From Flectobacillus sp. BAB-3569 (GTDB taxonomy: Bacteria; Bacteroidota; Bacteroidia; Cytophagales; Spirosomataceae), in contig NZ_NJFZ01000015.1 of the NCBI RefSeq assembly GCF_002270355.1, forward strand, positions 248,001 through 312,000: DNA of 64,000 nucleotides. Direction: 5' to 3'. Position 1 is the first letter of the stretch. Each line of letters opens with the position of its first letter. Positions 2,865 through 60,924 of the stretch are shown piece by piece. A model generated the notes under the pieces. That model ran no database searches and was not told where the DNA came from. It saw only the letters and a program-made list of their open reading frames with translations. A program made the translations under genes and the position numbers.

Positions 2865-2965
2865 TGTAAATGGATTTCAAAACTATAACCCTTTTGAGAA
2901 GTAAGTAAAACTATCAAAGAGAGTCTAAAAGATAGTCTTGAACTAGGATAGTAATCATGAAATTA

Positions 2966-3010
2966 CACTCAAAACTCATCACTCATAGTTCAGCACTCCT
3001 ACTTATCTCC
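2966..3010. repeat. Heptad-phase repeat, copy 1 of a 34-base dispersed element
   Basis: The stretch AACTCATCACTCA and onward to 3006 matches 30 of 34 bases with 58931-58964 and resembles 60891-60924. Its words are seven bases long with the pattern NNYTCAN. It overlaps the last codons of the minus-strand membrane protein gene. Confidence 0.7.
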
Positions 3011-4042
3011 TTTTAAGAACTCTAAATTCCAAATCTTTTCTGCCTTTTGACCTAAAAACCAAAATGATACTGCAAGGATTAAGAAGAATACAGCTTTGTG
3101 AACTGAGTCCCAGAAGTATTCGAAAAATTTAGTGTAAAGATTGATAAACAGAAAGGTAATCCCGAAACTTCTCGAAGTATAATCGTCTTGTTTGAGTCCA
3201 TACCAAATCGCCAAAATAGCCGCTCCTGCAAATAAGATTCCCCAGTGAAATAGCTCTATTTGTTTGACATGATACCAAGAATCCATATCGCCATAATTGC
3301 CAAAAATAGACAATATCCAAAGTGAAATAAAGAGGTATAAAAGTCCTAAAACATAAGTAGGATGTCGGAAATCGTCCAGTTTTGATTTTTTCGGAATAAA
3401 AAAACTAGCAATAGTTAAGAGCAATCCAAACAGCACAAATCGCATAGGATAGTTCATGCCAATAAAATAAGCTCCCCAGCCTGAGGCGTAGCCTGTCTCT
3501 GTTCCAAACCACGTTCCGAACGATAATACGGCAAAAATCCAGACTAGCGTGGAAGGAAACCAGAACCCTAAGCCTGCATATATCAAGGTAGACAGTAAAA
3601 ATAGCATAGAAAAATGCCCGCTGCCATTGTCGATGACTTTTCCAAAATAACCTACTGCAACTGCCGTAGCCAATACGCCTCCTAGAAAGATAGTCTCATT
3701 GCTAAACAGATTTTGTGGATGATTTTTGCGACGATTTAGCCCCCAAGCATAAAGTCCAGCAGAAATTCCAATAAAACCAATACAAATAGCGGTATTAGAA
3801 GAAGTAAAAAGTTCGGTAATGAGTTCGATAAGACGATTGTCTTTGAGTGCAGTAGCAACTGAAATAATGATACAAATCATGGCAATCCAAAACGCATAGA
3901 TAGCCAGTTTCATCCAATCAAAAGGGCGAATTTGGACTTCCGATTTAAGTTTTTCGGCGGTATCGTCGTTGATGGTTCCTCGCTTTTTCCACTCTTCGAT
4001 GGTTTCTAGGAGAAACTCACCTTGTTTTCTGTTATAATTCAT
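2999..4042 (-). CDS. DUF2157-like polytopic membrane protein
   Basis: A 347-residue inner-membrane protein. The first ~40 residues (KQGEFLLETIEEWKKRGTIN, then DDTAEKLKSEV) are a soluble helical region like the cytoplasmic N-terminus of DUF2157 proteins, where a short segment about a 'sequence to be run through' precedes the membrane part. About ten hydrophobic segments follow. No catalytic motif is visible and the role of the family is unknown. It has no close partner: the AraC regulator upstream is 161 bases away on the same strand. Its last codons lie inside a dispersed heptad repeat, so the exact C-terminus may have been shaped by repeat insertion. The family call rests on overall layout and is moderate. 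Confidence 0.7.
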   Translation of the reverse strand: MNYNRKQGEFLLETIEEWKKRGTINDDTAEKLKSEVQIRPFDWMKLAIYAFWIAMICIIISVATALKDNRLIELITELFTSSNTAICIGFIGISAGLYAWGLNRRKNHPQNLFSNETIFLGGVLATAVAVGYFGKVIDNGSGHFSMLFLLSTLIYAGLGFWFPSTLVWIFAVLSFGTWFGTETGYASGWGAYFIGMNYPMRFVLFGLLLTIASFFIPKKSKLDDFRHPTYVLGLLYLFISLWILSIFGNYGDMDSWYHVKQIELFHWGILFAGAAILAIWYGLKQDDYTSRSFGITFLFINLYTKFFEYFWDSVHKAVFFLILAVSFWFLGQKAEKIWNLEFLKGDK

Positions 4043-5482: not shown

Positions 5483-7003
5483 ATGGAAACAACAGTAGAA
5501 GTGAGCAACTTGGTGGCACGTCCACAATTCAAAGAGAGATACGAAAACTTTATTGGCGGCGAATGGGTAGCACCCGTGAAAGGTGAGTACTTTCAAAATT
5601 CTTCTCCAGTAGATGGTAGCACTTTTACGGAGGTAGCCCGTTCGAGCAAAGAAGATGTTGAGTTGGCGTTGGATGCAGCTCATAAAGCTTTTGCTTCTTG
5701 GTCTCGTACGTCGGCGACATATCGAAGTAATATTTTATTGAAAATTGCTGACGTAATGGAAGCAAATCTTGAATATTTGGCGGCAGTAGAAACCATTGAC
5801 AATGGCAAGCCTGTTCGTGAAACAATGGCGGCTGATATTCCTTTGGCAATAGATCACTTCCGTTATTTTGCAGGTGTTTTGCGTGCAGATGAGGGAACAA
5901 TGTCAGAGCTAGATGCCGATACAATTTCTATGCACATTCATGAGCCAATTGGTGTTGTGGGTCAGATTATTCCTTGGAATTTCCCACTTTTGATGGCTGC
6001 ATGGAAACTTTGTCCAGCTTTGGCTGCTGGTTGTACCGTAGTAATGAAACCTGCTGAACAAACACCAGTTGGTTTACTTGTCTTGATGGAGTTGTTGCAA
6101 AATGTACTTCCAGCAGGTGTAGTAAACGTCATCAATGGTTTTGGGGTAGAAGCAGGAAAGCCTTTAGCGCAATCGCCTAGAATAGCAAAAGTAGCCTTTA
6201 CAGGAGAAACCTCAACAGGTCGTTTGATTTTGCAATATGCGTCTGAAAACATTATTCCTGTAACGATGGAGTTGGGTGGTAAATCTGCCAATATTTTCTT
6301 CCCAAGTATTATGGATGCGGATGATGAGTTTTTTGACAAATGTTTGGAAGGTGCAGCGATGTTTGCCTTGAATCAAGGTGAAGTTTGTACTTGTCCATCA
6401 CGTATGTTGGTGCATGAAAGTATTTATGAAAAATTCATCGAAAGAGTAGTTGAAAGAGTAGAAAAAATCAAAATGGGACACCCGCTTGACCCAAATACGA
6501 TGATGGGTGCTCAGGCTTCGAAAGAACAGTTTGATAAAATCTTAGGTTATATCGAAGTCGGTCAAGAAGAAGGTGCTGAGTTGTTGACAGGTGGTGCTTC
6601 ACAATACATCGATGGCTTGCCAGAGGGTTATTACATCAAACCAACGCTTTTCAAAGGACATAACAAGATGCGTATTTTCCAAGAAGAAATCTTTGGACCT
6701 GTTGCTTCGGTTGCTACTTTCAAAACTGTTGAAGAAGCTATAGCAATTGCCAATGACAGTTTGTATGGTTTGGGTGCTGGTGTTTGGACACGCGACGCAC
6801 ACGAATTATTGACCGTACCAAGAGAGCTTCAAGCAGGTCGTGTTTGGGTAAACTGCTACCATGCTTATCCAGCACATGCTTCGTTTGGAGGATATAAAAA
6901 ATCAGGTTTCGGTCGTGAAACGCACAAAATGTCATTGAACCAATATCGTCAAACGAAAAATATCTTGTTGTCAAACAACAAAAATAAACTAGGGTTCTTT
7001 TAA
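5483..7003 (+). CDS. NAD-dependent aldehyde dehydrogenase (acetaldehyde dehydrogenase type)
   Basis: A 506-residue ALDH superfamily enzyme oxidising an aldehyde to the acid with NAD(P)+. Visible landmarks are [20 protein letters not shown] (cofactor binding), FTGETSTGR (Rossmann turn), [12 protein letters not shown] with the general base Glu near residue 268, and [11 protein letters not shown] with catalytic C302. EEIFGPV and [13 protein letters not shown] near the C-terminus complete the family set. GEVCTCPSR is typical of the ExaC/AldB-like group that acts on acetaldehyde and other short aldehydes. The downstream DUF779 gene and the divergent AraC regulator are the usual companions of this group. 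A 13-base-stem hairpin made of heptad repeats lies between it and the DUF779 gene. Confidence 0.95.
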
Positions 7004-7014
7004 ACAATGTGTTA

Positions 7015-7117
7015 GTTGTGAATGGTGAATTGTGAATAGTTGCAACAAATACTGCATAGGGGTACTATATACCTTCTTTATGTATAATTTGTAATTCACA
7101 ATTCACTCATTCAAGAT
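7015..7117. repeat. Inverted heptad-repeat tracts between ALDH and DUF779 genes
   Basis: GTGAATTGTGAAT (7025-7037) and ATTCACAATTCAC (7094-7106) are exact inverted copies, each inside a tract with 7-base period (TGAATNG words on the left, AATTCAC words on the right). A transcript crossing the gap could fold into a 13-bp stem with a ~56-base loop. Confidence 0.75.
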
Positions 7118-7131
7118 TCAAAATTGAAGTT

Positions 7132-18908: not shown

Positions 18909-19107
18909 TTTGTATTAAAGCTATTATAAGTTTCAACTGGCAATATGTCTCCAAAAATCCATTTAGCCGTCCTGCTTCCTCGGCTGATGGGATAATAATT
19001 TGTGATTGAATGAATGAGTGATTTAGCGATTATTTTTTAATATGATTTAACATCAAACATGAGTCATCCCGAATTTTTAGGATTGGATTATTCTCCACGT
19101 TTTTATC

Positions 19108-19145
19108 AAAAAAGCGGTCGATAAATGTTTTTCGACCGCTTTTTG
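19108..19145 (-). terminator. Terminator of the OxyR-type gene
   Basis: AAAAAGCGGTCGA and TCGACCGCTTTTT form a 13-bp stem around a 10-12 base loop, with runs of A and T on both sides. It is 160 bases beyond the minus-strand stop. Confidence 0.7.
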
Positions 19146-19173
19146 ATGCTACTATGCTAGATATGAATGGCAT

Positions 19174-19194
19174 GAGACGCAATCATTGCGTCTC
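19174..19194. repeat. Palindrome GAGACGCAAT-C-ATTGCGTCTC
   Basis: Two exact 10-base arms around one base, flanked by CT ACT. From memory, palindromes with this GAGACGCAAT...GCGTCTC core occur as dispersed repeats in other bacterial genomes; this could not be checked here. Confidence 0.6.
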
Positions 19195-19301
19195 TACTGA
19201 TGGAATACAAATTTTCACATAATCACTCATTCGCTCAAGCACTCATTCACTCAATTACAATTCGCTCACAACTCACTCAATAACAGAAAGTGAAAATATC
19301 C

Positions 19302-21121: not shown

Positions 21122-21258
21122 CACCACTAAAATTATACTCGCTTTAGGCTTTAAGCAATAGGCAAAATGTTTCTAAAAAACAAGCCTACCTTTACTGAAT
21201 GCCCATAGCTGAAAGCCAAAAGCAAAATCGTTTGATTTAATTTTGCACGATTACTTAA
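21122..21258. repeat. Inverted GGCTTTN heptad tracts plus a dispersed AT-rich motif
   Basis: 21141-21163 and the complement of 21201-21223 match at 19 of 23 bases, each with 7-base period (GCTTTAG, GCTTTAA words). The right-hand copy matches 60726-60748 at 21 of 23. The tract ends in GCACGATTACTTAA (21245-21258), repeated at 60849-60862. Confidence 0.75.
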
Positions 21259-21345
21259 GTTTTTAAAATAATACATTGGGCTAACATGATTATGTTAGCT
21301 TTTCTTCAAATAAGACTTTCAGGATTTTATAAATAACATCATAAC

Positions 21346-35629: not shown

Positions 35630-36003
35630 AGATAATCATGAAGACGAAGAGGCTTCGATATTTAATGACTTTGGCGTAACCTTAAAAACTGTGCCAATGT
35701 TGTACATCTCAGAGGTAAAGTTAATGTAAAAAAACTTTTATTATGCTAAAATGATATAATTCTGCGAGGGATTTAACTATTTTTAATGGAATGCGGAAAG
35801 ATAAAACGAAAATAGATTTTCCGAGAAGAACAGCTTAAATGAAGATAGAAGTATAAGGAAGTTTTTGCTGAGTAATGATGCTATTGAGGTATGATTGTTT
35901 TGGGAGGAATGCTTTGACGAGAAATTATCTTGAAGATTATTACTTAGCCGTATGTGCTAGGCTTGAGCTTACGGCATAAAGCCTAGCGCATACGACTGAT
36001 ATA
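35630..36003. other. Gene-free stretch with an inverted heptad hairpin
   Basis: No gene is seen. The stretch holds the upstream region of the OmpA pair and a 16-base inverted repeat near its rpe end (35949-35994). No exact TAnnTTTG box was found for the OmpA genes. Confidence 0.5.
35949..35994 (-). repeat. Inverted GGCTT-type heptad pair after rpe
   Basis: CGTATGTGCTAGGCTT and AAGCCTAGCGCATACG are inverted copies with one mismatch (15 of 16), 14 bases apart, and show the same seven-base phase as other tracts. It follows the minus-strand rpe stop within 10 bases, so it may act as its terminator, though no T run follows. Confidence 0.6.
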
Positions 36004-40484: not shown

Positions 40485-40552
40485 GTAGTGAGCTGTGTGT
40501 GAGTTTACCAAATGCTTTTTACTTAAGGCCTACGGCTTACAGCTCTATCATG
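40485..40552. repeat. Heptad-phase tract downstream of dapA
   Basis: Words of seven bases recur: TTGAGTA, GTGAGCT on the left and TTAAGGC, CTACGGC, TTACAGC on the right. Both word types (TCA/TGA and GGC) found elsewhere in the window occur together. Confidence 0.55.
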
Positions 40553-41377: not shown

Positions 41378-41470
41378 GAGTGAATGGTGGTTGAGTGAAG
41401 GAGTGATTTTTAAAAATTCATATTAAAAATAATTACTCATTCACTCAACCAAATCATTCAGTTAGAGATA
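41378..41470. repeat. Inverted heptad tracts between convergent genes
   Basis: GGTTGAGTGAA (41389-41399) and TTCACTCAACC (41440-41450) are exact inverted copies within tracts of seven-base phase (TGAGTGA words and their complements). They lie between convergent genes and could serve as a two-way terminator. Confidence 0.7.
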
Positions 41471-48832: not shown

Positions 48833-48867
48833 AAAAAAGCTAGTCCAAGACTAAGTCTTGAACTAGT
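48833..48867 (-). terminator. Terminator of the giant T9SS cargo gene
   Basis: On the minus strand TAGTTCAAGAC and GTCTTGGACTA pair around TTA and run into GC-TTTTTT, about 30 bases past the stop codon. Confidence 0.75.
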
Positions 48868-58680: not shown

Positions 58681-58699
58681 ATAATGGAGAGGTTAAAAT

Positions 58700-59030
58700 G
58701 GTGAGTTATGAATAATGAATTGTGAATTAGTAATGAGCAAAGGATACAAAAATAATTTATTTCAGATTTCTGATATTAAGTATTAGTGCAGAATTATAGT
58801 TAAGTTTTGTGTGTTAGGGACAAGGCAACAGGCATAAGGCAAGGAGTGTTAAAATGTTTTTAAAGACCACAGACATGCACTTTCCCCATAGCCCACCGCC
58901 GAAAGCCGAAAGCTCAAAAATCACCTTCAAAACTCATCACTCACAATTCAGCACTCATACTTACCTATCCTTCAAGCGCAAAATACTGAATTCTTTGTCA
59001 ATGAACAATCAGAAAAATTTACCCCCCCCT
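58700..59030. repeat. Cluster of heptad-phase tracts, part 1
   Basis: Four tracts in seven-base phase: TGAATNN words at 58702-58740; AAGGCAA, CAGGCAT and similar at ~58822-58850; CCCATAG, CCCACCG, CCGAAAG at ~58884-58918; and the 34-base dispersed element at 58931-58964 (30 of 34 with 2973-3006). A run of eight C bases (59022-59029) follows. No gene is supported here. Confidence 0.7.
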
Positions 59031-59069
59031 AAACAACGCCACATTGAAGCTGTTTAAACCTTTTCGTTA

Positions 59070-59089
59070 CGGGTGAATAAATTCACCCG
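59070..59089. repeat. Palindrome CGGGTGAAT-AA-ATTCACCCG
   Basis: Two exact nine-base arms around AA. Like the GAGACGCAAT palindrome at 19174 it stands inside a repeat-rich gap. Confidence 0.55.
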
Positions 59090-59130
59090 CTAAGTGGAAA
59101 ACTTTCATATTGTTAACCATTCCCCTAGCG

Positions 59131-59262
59131 ACTCACCCCTAGTGCCTAGTGCCTATACCCTATCCCCTAAAAAACCACTCAAACACTCTGTGCCTTTGTG
59201 CCTGTTCCCTAAAACCAAAACCTATCCCCTAACGCCTCACTCCTTTCCATGCCTAAAAAATT
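59131..59262. repeat. Cluster of heptad-phase tracts, part 2 (TNNNNCC words)
   Basis: TAGTGCC twice in tandem, then TATACCC, TATCCCC, TGTGCCT, TTGTGCC, TGTTCCC and similar seven-base words with a pyrimidine-rich end. Open frames across this stretch are artefacts of the repeats. Confidence 0.65.
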
Positions 59263-59364
59263 ACCATTTCAACAATTTAAGTACTCTTTTTTTAACAAGT
59301 TTACAAGAAATAAAAGCCAATATTAATTAATCAAAAAAAGTTAGTTTAAGCAATCTCCTTCAAT

Positions 59365-59372
59365 TAACTTTG
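59365..59372 (+). promoter_or_regulatory. -7 box of the aminotransferase gene
   Basis: TAACTTTG is an exact TAnnTTTG match 71 bases before the start codon. The -33 region has TTAG instead of TTG. Confidence 0.6.
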
Positions 59373-59443
59373 TGCAATTTTGGGGGTGACTGTAATTTGC
59401 TCAAATCTTCCTCGTTTTTTCATAATCCGAAACAACAAAAACA

Positions 59444-60646
59444 ATGTCTGTCGAATTATTATCAAGTCGAATCAACGCATTAGAAGAGTCGGCTACGTTG
59501 GGAATGACCAAAAAAGCTCGCGAATTGGCGGCTCAAGGTCACAAAGTGATTAGTTTATCTGTAGGTGAACCAGATTTCAAAACTCCAAAGCACATTTGTG
59601 ATGCTGCTAAAGACGCTATTGATGCTGGTTTTCACGGTTACTCACCAGTGGCTGGTTACCCTGACTTGCGTAAAGCAATTGCCGATAAATTAAAACGTGA
59701 CAACAACCTTGAGTGGGGTCCAGAAAATATCGTAGTTTCTACAGGAGCAAAACACGCATTGGCAAATGCTATTTCGGTATTGGTAAACCCTGGCGAAGAA
59801 GTAATCATCTTTGCACCTTATTGGGTATCATACTCTGAAATGGTAAAATTAGCTGAAGGTACTTCTGTCATTGTAGAAGGTGCTTTTGATAATAACTTCA
59901 AAGTAACTCCAGAGCAATTTGAAGCAGCAATCACACCTAAGACTAAATTGGTGATGTTTGCTTCTCCAAACAACCCTACTGGTTCGGTATATACTGAAGA
60001 AGAATTGAGAGCTATTGCTGCTATTGTTGAAAAACATCCAAATATCTTCGTTTTAGCTGACGAGATTTACGAATATATCAACTTTACAGCAGGTGGTCAC
60101 TTCTCTATCGGTTCTATTCCAGCTATCAAAGACCGTGTAATCACTGTAAATGGTGTTGCAAAAGGTCATGCGATGACTGGTTGGAGAATTGGTTTCACGG
60201 CATCTGCTAAATGGATTGCAGAAGGTCTTGAGAAATTACAAGGTCAAGTTACTTCAGGTACTTGTTCAATCGCTCAGAAAGCTGCTACTGCTGCTTTCAA
60301 TGGTCCTTTGGATGAGGCTTACAAAATGAAGGAAGCTTACGACCGTCGTCGTCATCTTGTAGTGGGTTTGTTGCGTGAAATCCCAGGTTTCAAAGTAAAC
60401 ATGCCAGACGGTGCGTTCTACGCATTCCCAGATATTAGCTACTACTTTGGTAAAACTGATGGCAAAACAGTAATCAACAACTCTGACGATTTCTGTATGT
60501 GGTTGTTGGCTGAGGCTTTTGTAGCTACTGTAGCTGGTTCAGGCTTTGGTGCTCCAAACTGTATGCGTATTTCAACTGCTGCCGCTGACGAACAATTGGC
60601 AGAAGCTTGCGAAAGAATTAAGACTGCTGTAGCTAAATTGAAATAA
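59444..60646 (+). CDS. Class I/II pyridoxal-phosphate aminotransferase (aspartate type)
   Basis: A 400-residue fold-type I aminotransferase. VISLSVGEPDFKTPKHICDA and GFHGYSPVAGYPDLRKAIAD are the family openings; STGAKHALANAISVLVNPGE binds cofactor phosphate; ASPNNPTGSVYTEEEL holds the substrate Asn; VLADEIYEYINF the Asp and Tyr; NGVAKGHAMTGWRIGF the Schiff-base K240; NCMRISTA the C-terminal Arg. This Igamma subgroup transaminates aspartate, and some members use prephenate. Codon choice resembles highly expressed genes. Confidence 0.95.
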   Translation: MSVELLSSRINALEESATLGMTKKARELAAQGHKVISLSVGEPDFKTPKHICDAAKDAIDAGFHGYSPVAGYPDLRKAIADKLKRDNNLEWGPENIVVSTGAKHALANAISVLVNPGEEVIIFAPYWVSYSEMVKLAEGTSVIVEGAFDNNFKVTPEQFEAAITPKTKLVMFASPNNPTGSVYTEEELRAIAAIVEKHPNIFVLADEIYEYINFTAGGHFSIGSIPAIKDRVITVNGVAKGHAMTGWRIGFTASAKWIAEGLEKLQGQVTSGTCSIAQKAATAAFNGPLDEAYKMKEAYDRRRHLVVGLLREIPGFKVNMPDGAFYAFPDISYYFGKTDGKTVINNSDDFCMWLLAEAFVATVAGSGFGAPNCMRISTAAADEQLAEACERIKTAVAKLK

Positions 60647-60719
60647 GCAACTTTAAGCTTAGTGTAATAATGCAAAGTGAAGTTAGTGAGATAAGTAGGT
60701 GGGCAAAATAAAATTTAAT

Positions 60720-60924
60720 TTTTGAGCCTTTGGCTTTCAGCTTTGGGCATTCGGCAAAAACATATCTATCGTAAATAAAAAACATTTTAACACTCTTTGC
60801 CTTGTGCCTGTTGCCTAGTGCCTAAACTCATAAGTCAAATCTAATTGTGCACGATTACTTAATAGATTAGTAAGTAAAATTTACATTCATAATTCATCAC
60901 TCACAATTCCGCAATCATATTTAA
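60720..60924. repeat. Heptad-phase tracts downstream of the aminotransferase
   Basis: 60726-60748 matches the complement of 21201-21223 at 21 of 23 bases. At ~60800-60835 the words TTTGCCT, TGTGCCT, GTTGCCT, AGTGCCT pass without break of phase into AAACTCA and TAAGTCA. GCACGATTACTTAA (60849-60862) repeats 21245-21258, and 60891-60924 is a third copy (29 of 34) of the dispersed element at 58931. Confidence 0.75.

What the first reader, a model, noticed from the sequence alone, without database searches (positions are those of the whole stretch)
58700..60924. A family of intergenic tracts with a strict seven-base period made of a few recurring words
Seen directly: gene-free stretches at about 2966-3006, 7015-7117, 18998-19275, 21122-21258, 35949-35994, 40485-40552, 41378-41470, 58700-59262 and 60720-60924 read as runs of seven-base words. 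Two word types dominate, NNYTCAN (AACTCAT, CACTCAC, AATTCAG) and GGCTTTN/GTGCCTN (GCTTTAG, AGTGCCT). The phase is kept while words change; at 60800-60835 it passes from one word type to the other without slipping. They are too degenerate for simple satellites and lie outside genes. Known analogues, from memory, are the heptanucleotide STRR repeats of cyanobacteria, but those repeat one word; I know no named family like this. Inference: an unidentified copying or slippage process that keeps length 7, or RNA-level structure.
Basis: partly seen in the sequence, partly recalled or inferred. Interest (0 to 1): 0.85.

Follow-up and report, generated by a model that had tools for sequence, protein, structure and literature searches.

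The report
Seven-base word arrays after gene ends
Gaps between genes of this bacterium (genus Flectobacillus) hold runs of similar seven-letter words; many lie in short DNA elements that appear to move, and the runs tend to sit right after gene ends with their G-rich strand facing the same way as the gene.

Summary
The seven-base period is real. In 190 kb of intergenic DNA there are 170 lag-7 tracts, 33 at lag 8, and 5-12 at lags 3-6 and 9-13. It is not strict, and five of the nine listed stretches show no lag-7 signal at gap level. 118 of 172 tracts lie in four short dispersed families, E1, E2, E3 and E5. Window E1 (60694-60859) is a clean insertion: sister G001 has one TA at the empty site. 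I read the families as MITE-like; no transposase was found. Arrays gain and lose whole words. Conserved RNA structure was not supported.

The unexpected result is placement. With its G-rich strand in sense, a tract facing a gene 3' end lies within 30 nt of the stop in 50 of 86 cases; with the C-rich strand in sense, 3 of 83. Tracts outside all elements follow the rule (21 of 31 against 2 of 26), as do period-8 tracts (11 of 21 against 0 of 20); random placement gives 15%. Bacterial heptamer repeats, and G-rich ones near stop codons, are in print. Degenerate words of many classes, mobile carriers and one strand rule make this a new variant. Mechanism unproven.

The parts
60694..60859 (+). E1 copy, 166 bp between two TA (60692-60693 and 60860-60861): imperfect TIR, (GGCTTTN) array, spacer, (TGCCTNN)x4 array, TIR ...TGCACGATTACT
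   Evidence: nhmmer 60688-60871 E 1.2e-49; clean insertion, site empty with a single TA in G001; G002 also lacks it but its gap has diverged and shows no TA there
58777..58963 (-). E1/E2 chimera, 187 bp with TA at both ends; TGCC and GGCTTT arrays plus an NAYTCAN array next to one TIR
   Evidence: TIR pair; E1 E 1.6e-43, E2 E 1.5e-7. Sisters: G001 has a shorter E2-like element and G002 none; the G001/G002 pair gives a clean TA site. This genome shares the right junction, but its left junction lacks some 15 bp that both sisters have, so it is not an exact filled/empty pair
58694..58744 (+). TGA-type heptads in a divergent gap, not after a stop codon
   Evidence: in no element model
59128..59245 (+). 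CCCTANN / TGCCTAG heptads; 21 bp longer here than in G001 and G002 at one point, G002 14 bp longer than G001 at another
   Evidence: in no element apart from a weak E1 hit 59179-59215, E 0.0002
60884..60915 (+). NAYTCAN heptads; words differ among three species while the right-hand flank is almost unchanged
   Evidence: E2 hit 60856-60920 (-) E 6e-10
2946..3004 (-). partial E2 whose TIR-like end overlaps the stop codon of the minus-strand gene 2999-4042; TGA words follow
   Evidence: E2 E 1e-10
7004..7131 (.). TGA heptads 15 nt after the stop of gene 5483-7003 and an inverted array at the other end; same gap length (128 bp) in G002
   Evidence: z 6.1
18909..19301 (.). period-8 words at both ends (inverted) around hairpins: a different repeat, E8-like
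   Evidence: lag-8 z 3.2; (E8 model rests on 2 sequences)
21131..21259 (-). diverged E1/E5-like element
   Evidence: E1 E 6.3e-10, E5 E 7.3e-8

Best explanation
Two layers. (1) Arrays of seven-base (less often eight-base) words lie directly after gene stop codons with their G-rich strand as coding strand, whatever the word; they lengthen and shorten by whole words and drift at the free positions (shown as pattern; the copying step is inferred: misalignment or unequal exchange between words). (2) Most of them here are carried in short non-autonomous elements (MITE-like; about 100-190 bp; ends of the type AGTAATCGTGCA / AGTATTAGTGC; target TA) that spread them through the genus (insertion shown at named sites; transposase inferred). 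Why the G-rich strand and the stop codon matter is open. My favoured mechanism, not tested: behind the last ribosome the transcript is bare, a G-rich transcript can pair back with its template, and the open DNA there invites word-step slippage and tolerates insertions.
For: Carriers: E1 82 hits in 1.23 Mb, many ending at the same model positions; E1/E2 inverted ends, E2 copies of 98, 104 and 105 bp; E1 insertion with single TA at the empty site; 20 clean insert rows of 141 after a flank filter, two inserts appearing twice because they are seen against both sisters, several with heptads; 118 of 172 tracts in E1, E2, E3 or E5. Turnover. Placement: all tracts 50 of 86 against 3 of 83; two-armed elements 13 of 38 against 1 of 42, E2 16 of 17 against 0 of 15, free tracts 21 of 31 against 2 of 26, period 8 11 of 21 against 0 of 20; random placement 1391 of 9153; ordinary stretches after stops are only mildly G-rich, 806 against 567.
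Against: No autonomous copy: 15 spans covering the 21 long TIR pairs hold no transposase among 24 ORFs scanned (22 match other Pfam families, one of these only below its cut-offs; 2 match none); only part of the genome was scanned so. The single DDE_3 gene of the genome has other ends by my reading. TA duplication is exact at one window site and in the G001/G002 pair, approximate elsewhere. 54 of 172 tracts match no element. In two-armed elements the G-rich strand reads inward from both ends, so for them the strand rule partly follows from anatomy. Distances rest on ORF calls. In loci from other genomes the rule is mixed. E1-specific DNA was found in two named genomes only (50 listed stretches).
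Confidence: 0.62

Rival explanations
1. The TGA-type heptads (TGARTKN) are a three-frame stop array that insulates gene ends; mobile elements only distribute it.
For: Own 26 of 31 within 30 nt in sense (49 tracts; null mean 3.2, maximum 9 in 300 draws), antisense 0 of 23; G001 18 of 21 and 0 of 15; G002 7 of 9 and 0 of 7. E2: array end within 15 nt of a 3' end 17 of 28, other end 2 of 27 (P 4e-5), while E1 shows no significant end bias (16 of 41, 11 of 46, P 0.17). TGA x4: 24 at period 7, 3 at 8, none at 6, 9 or 12.
Against: Words without regular stops follow the same rule: GAT class 7 of 15 against 0 of 12, AGGC class 13 of 23 against 1 of 26 (a stricter motif had given weaker figures). Periods 5, 10, 11, 13 would serve as well but give none; period 4 gives 7, none near a stop. 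Elsewhere some post-stop words (AATTCAG, AATTCAA) have no stop in sense, by eye. In 11 of 25 comparisons the sister lacks a tract.
Confidence: 0.1
2. Replication slippage alone favours seven-base units (an idea that PMC4679880 attributes to Mrazek et al. 2007); no carrier and no link with transcription are needed.
For: Clean indels that copy their neighbour, length 4 and more: 6 of length 7, 3 of 8, 1 of 4, none of 5, 6 or 9-30. Perfect (TGCCTAT)n arrays in G001 and G002.
Against: By the printed context these indels lie in existing arrays; clean indels of all kinds rise only mildly at 6-8. Does not predict the placement rule or the dispersed families.
Confidence: 0.13
3. Conserved hairpins (terminators or regulators) explain the arrays, arms pairing GGC with GCC word by word.
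For: By eye, arms are inverted word arrays in E1, E3 and E5; minus strand of 60702-60869 folds at z -2.74, plus strand -1.65 (the stretch folded is shifted 8-10 nt from the element ends).
Against: 40 E1 copies: 3 pairs, none with a double change. No Rfam match in the window.
Confidence: 0.07
4. The stop-codon placement is an artefact: arrays and TIRs contain stops, so ORFs are called up to them.
For: Some stops lie in the TIR or tract (negative distances); many free tracts start at distance 0; genes were called by ORF length only.
Against: 24 of the 31 own TGA tracts have the stop wholly before the tract motif at 0-30 nt, 13 of 33 distinct places elsewhere. By reading, the other E2 end also has stops in three frames yet lacks the bias. 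Words without regular stops obey the rule. At C20:181183 both sisters lacking the insert have the stop.
Confidence: 0.1

Closest known systems
TAACTGA and other heptanucleotide repeats (MacGregor 2015, PMC4679880)
   Same: Seven-base unit, mostly intergenic, 7-nt indels between close strains, other heptamers alongside in some Bacteroidetes, stops in all frames noted, suspicion of mobility
   Different: One main word, mostly just upstream of start codons in the Beggiatoaceae strain, no carrier shown. Here several degenerate word classes, TIR-bounded carriers, G-rich strand in sense after stop codons
GGGNATC repeats of Xanthomonas and Nostoc (Rehm 2015, PMC4692102)
   Same: Heptads; downstream of ORFs mostly within 50 bp of the stop on the coding strand (section read)
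   Different: Quadruplex-forming G-rich word, described there as generally not associated with mobile elements; most words here cannot form quadruplexes (inference from the words)
BrickBuilt MITE of Porphyromonas gingivalis (PMC4596501, abstract and outline seen)
   Same: Bacteroidetes MITE with small inverted-repeat ends and an internal tandem array, always intergenic
   Different: 23-nt unit; here degenerate 7-nt words as arms or next to the TIR
MITEs with TA target such as Correia elements and RUP (recalled, not tested)
   Same: Short, TIR, TA duplication, many copies
   Different: No word arrays known to me; no matching IS found here

Membership tests
MITE | Short, non-coding, many dispersed copies | tested here: met
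   E1 82 hits in 1.23 Mb; 1 of 88 hits in a gene
MITE | Terminal inverted repeats | tested here: met
   E1, E2 ends, imperfect in E1; E3 by motif
MITE | Target-site duplication with empty sites | tested here: met
   TA at window E1 against G001, and at the E2-like element of G001 against G002; approximate elsewhere
MITE | Autonomous element with the same ends | tested here: inconclusive
   None among 24 ORFs in TIR-bounded spans of the stretches examined; one DDE_3 gene in the genome, other ends
Heptanucleotide STRR/LSSR | Tandem iteration of one seven-base word | tested here: not met
   Words vary at fixed positions, e.g. TGARTKN; Tandem Repeats Finder finds only short period-7 rows in the window, up to 4 copies
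Heptanucleotide STRR/LSSR | Length change by whole units | tested here: met
REP/REPIN | 20-40 bp palindrome tagged GTAG or CGTC, RAYT transposase | tested here: not met
   E1/E2 are longer and have no such tag at their ends; RAYT genes not searched
Structured RNA family | Covarying base pairs or an Rfam match | tested here: not met

The most novel reading that the evidence does not exclude
Near-tandem arrays of 7- or 8-base words, of any word, are made and kept directly behind stop codons with the G-rich strand as coding strand by a transcription-linked process (bare, G-rich transcript pairing back with its template where ribosomes leave), and are then picked up and spread by MITE-like elements. 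The same degenerate word TGARTKN after stop codons in other families suggests the process is general.
Probability: 0.22. Interest if true: 0.8.

Novelty: new variant of a known kind. Interest (0 to 1): 0.6.

Why it matters
Why bacteria favour seven-base repeats is open; in what I read of PMC4679880 and PMC4692102 no mechanism is established. Here arrays can be compared word by word between sister species, and a strand-and-position rule that holds for different words and for two periods points to where and on which strand the process acts. That makes a transcription-linked origin directly testable.

Tried and rejected
Autonomous element: 21 long TIR pairs, 15 spans after merging; 24 ORFs scanned, no transposase (one overlapping ORF and one lying across two loci not scanned; one span has no ORF of 120 aa). 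A 1.2-kb candidate at C48 is a DUF2400 gene between two E1 copies. IS630-type gene: one, other ends by eye. Conserved RNA structure. Rfam: none. A 7-bp duplicator outside arrays: not seen. Small odds elsewhere were shifted to match: main 0.65 to 0.62, slippage 0.15 to 0.13, hairpin 0.08 to 0.07, artefact 0.12 to 0.1. Papers: searches; Flectobacillus + repeat + genome held 57 papers, 12 listed, none about repeats by title. I found nothing on stop-proximal degenerate heptads beyond PMC4692102 and PMC4679880; this speaks for those searches only.

Full report
Source. The window is G000:C20:248001-312000 of a 6.62-Mb draft genome in 183 contigs. The window's own genome may be left out of that collection. 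The second title looks like a misnomer (inference).

The observation. Lag 7 and its double stand out in intergenic DNA of the window (z 3.2 and 5.4; lag 2 also 2.9). In 1.23 Mb of the genome there are 170 lag-7 tracts, 33 at lag 8, 77 and 26 at lags 14 and 21, and 5-12 at lags 3-6 and 9-13; coding DNA shows 11 at lag 7 in 1.04 Mb. Four of the nine listed stretches carry a lag-7 signal at gap level and five do not. Word classes read: NAYTCAN, NATCCNA, TGCCTNN, GGCTTTN, CCCTANN, TAACNGN at period 7; NATCRCTN, TTCAAATN, TTTGTGCC at period 8.

Carriers. TGCCTNNTGCCTNNTGCC has 228 matches in the genome and none read backwards. A profile of 28 copies finds 82 hits (E<1e-4) in 1.23 Mb. This is E1: TIR, (GGCTTTN) array, spacer, (TGCCTNN) array in inverted relation, TIR. 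E2 is 98-105 bp with the NAYTCAN array running straight into one TIR. E3 has TTCGGAN arrays on both arms and outer repeats TGTACGAAGGA. E5 is E1-like. 118 of 172 lag-7 tracts overlap E1, E2, E3 or E5 by at least 40%, and 54 none (172 rather than 170 because gaps were re-called on joined contigs).

Mobility. G001 reads gtgaga-TA-atag where this genome reads gtgaga-TA-[E1]-TA-atag at 60694-60859. G002 also lacks E1, but its gap has diverged. At 58777-58963 this genome has an E1/E2 chimera, G001 a shorter E2-like element and G002 none. G001 against G002 is a clean TA site; this genome shares the right junction but lacks about 15 bp at the left. In 452 aligned gap pairs (of 456, over 291 of 888 own gaps) there are 141 insertions of 60-450 bp; 20 rows pass a flank filter, and two inserts appear twice, against both sisters. 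The enzyme was not found.

How arrays change. In 59128-59245 this genome has 21 bp more than both sisters at one point, and G002 14 bp more than G001 at another. Elsewhere: 4 words against 7 in both sisters (C20:74885), 14 bp fewer in G002 (C20:225155), 14 bp more in G001 (C20:88142). E1 copies differ by 7 or 14 in the TGCC array. In-tract indels of 4-70 bp are multiples of 7 in 20 of 42, against 217 of 1560 outside (P 3e-7), with possible alignment bias. Clean indels that copy a neighbour, length 4 and more: 6 of length 7, 3 of 8, 1 of 4. At 60884-60915 words differ among three species while the right flank is almost unchanged.

Placement after stop codons. I first saw it in the NAYTCAN class, which on the other strand is TGARTKN. 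Own: 49 tracts; 26 of 31 that have a 3' end upstream in sense start within 30 nt of the stop (24 with the stop wholly before), null mean 3.2 and maximum 9 in 300 draws; 0 of 23 in antisense. G001 18 of 21 and 0 of 15; G002 7 of 9 and 0 of 7; 80 kb of G003 has none. E2 shows it by end: 17 of 28 against 2 of 27 within 15 nt. E1 is near stops with either end (16 of 41, 11 of 46) more than near starts (9 of 87).

On checking other words I found that the rule is wider. Orienting every lag-7 tract by its G-rich strand (167 tracts; ties dropped), tracts with that strand in sense after a 3' end lie within 30 nt in 50 of 86, and with the C-rich strand in sense in 3 of 83. By class: TGA 17 of 21 against 0 of 13; GAT 7 of 15 against 0 of 12; GAG 7 of 9 against 0 of 5; AGGC 13 of 23 against 1 of 26; other 6 of 18 against 2 of 27. 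By carrier: two-armed elements 13 of 38 against 1 of 42; E2 16 of 17 against 0 of 15; free tracts 21 of 31 against 2 of 26; period 8 outside elements 11 of 21 against 0 of 20. Random placement gives 1391 of 9153 (15%). Ordinary 35-bp stretches 0-30 nt after stops are G-rich in 806 and C-rich in 567 cases, so composition alone does not account for it. In two-armed elements the rule partly follows from anatomy, as the G-rich strand reads inward from both ends. Free tracts and E2 do not have that excuse. Gene ends rest on ORF length alone.

Elsewhere. A four-word NAYTCAN pattern occurs in 80 of 395 genomes of a phylum sample (481 matches); the reversed pattern in 32 (58 matches) (sums typed by eye). 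Of 36 loci, one (L165) gave no tract by the strict motif, and two places are held twice (L222/L232, L226/L236), leaving 33 distinct places. 15 have a sense stop within 30 nt upstream or at the first word (13 wholly before); 8 have an antisense ORF's stop within 30 nt, mostly with TGAATTC-type words (whose own totals, 15 and 9 of 35, count the duplicates). The loci were the first few listed per genome, not a random sample. The free positions of the word are alike there, with position 4 more often A (position 5 was largely fixed by the search). G003 and G004, same genus, lack the TGCC pattern, so the elements are patchy.

RNA structure. Consensus fold of 40 E1 copies: 3 pairs, no covariation. 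Single folds z -1.65 and -2.74. Rfam: nothing in the window.

Print. PMC4679880 (abstract; sections 9, 11, 12; passages): TAACTGA heptads in Beggiatoaceae, cyanobacteria and five Bacteroidetes, other heptamers alongside, 7-nt indels between Cyanothece strains, stops in all frames, possible mobility with no carrier; it credits Mrazek et al. 2007 with heptads as the most abundant class in most genomes examined and with a polymerase-contact idea. PMC4692102 (abstract, introduction, one results section): GGGNATC heptads, mostly within 50 bp of a stop on the coding strand when downstream. PMC4596501 (abstract, outline): a Bacteroidetes MITE with an internal array. PMC3733652 (passages). Each ingredient is known; their union, and a strand rule that holds for different words and two periods, is what I find new.

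Verdict. Partly confirmed and worth the look. Carriers plus placement rule as described: 0.62. A transcription-linked origin is the bold reading (0.22) and is open.

Noticed in passing
window about 19167-19198; other copies: Palindrome GTAGAGACGCAAT-ATTGCGTCTC, like GTAG-tagged REPs (PMC3733652, passages read), which that paper lists for Proteobacteria, Cyanobacteria, Chloroflexi and the PVC group, not Bacteroidetes.
   Followed up: partly
window about 19106-19148 and other gaps: Hairpin AAAAAGCGGTCGA...TCGACCGCTTTTT, terminator-like, repeated across the genome, often next to the GTAG palindrome and period-8 words.
   Followed up: no
window near 48851; a 13-mer of it in 21 of 888 gaps: Another dispersed palindrome, CCAAGACTAAGTCTTGAACTAG, of unknown kind.
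   Followed up: no
L153 (G001:C43 start) and L154 (G002:C130 end): Both assemblies break inside a perfect (TGCCTAT)n array beside what looks by eye like the same response-regulator gene: a long simple heptad array at an orthologous place.
   Followed up: partly
G338 contig C1, places: 22 array sites (merged by eye) run in 4 same-strand blocks (0.00025 of shuffles), perhaps following gene or replication direction; GC skew could not be checked.
   Followed up: partly
window 58777-60861; L140 7968-9180: A gene flanked by two E1 copies in opposite orientation, twice: an aminotransferase (PF00155) in the window and a DUF2400 gene, a composite-transposon-like layout.
   Followed up: partly
C20:174568-174615 against G001 and G002: After the same stop codon the TGA spacing differs by species: by eye 7, 4, 4, 7 here and 4, 4, 7, 8 in both sisters.
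   Followed up: no
L246 (G000:C106): The only DDE_3 (IS630-type) transposase found is in two ORFs (DDE_3 and HTH) beside an integrase-core transposase.
   Followed up: partly
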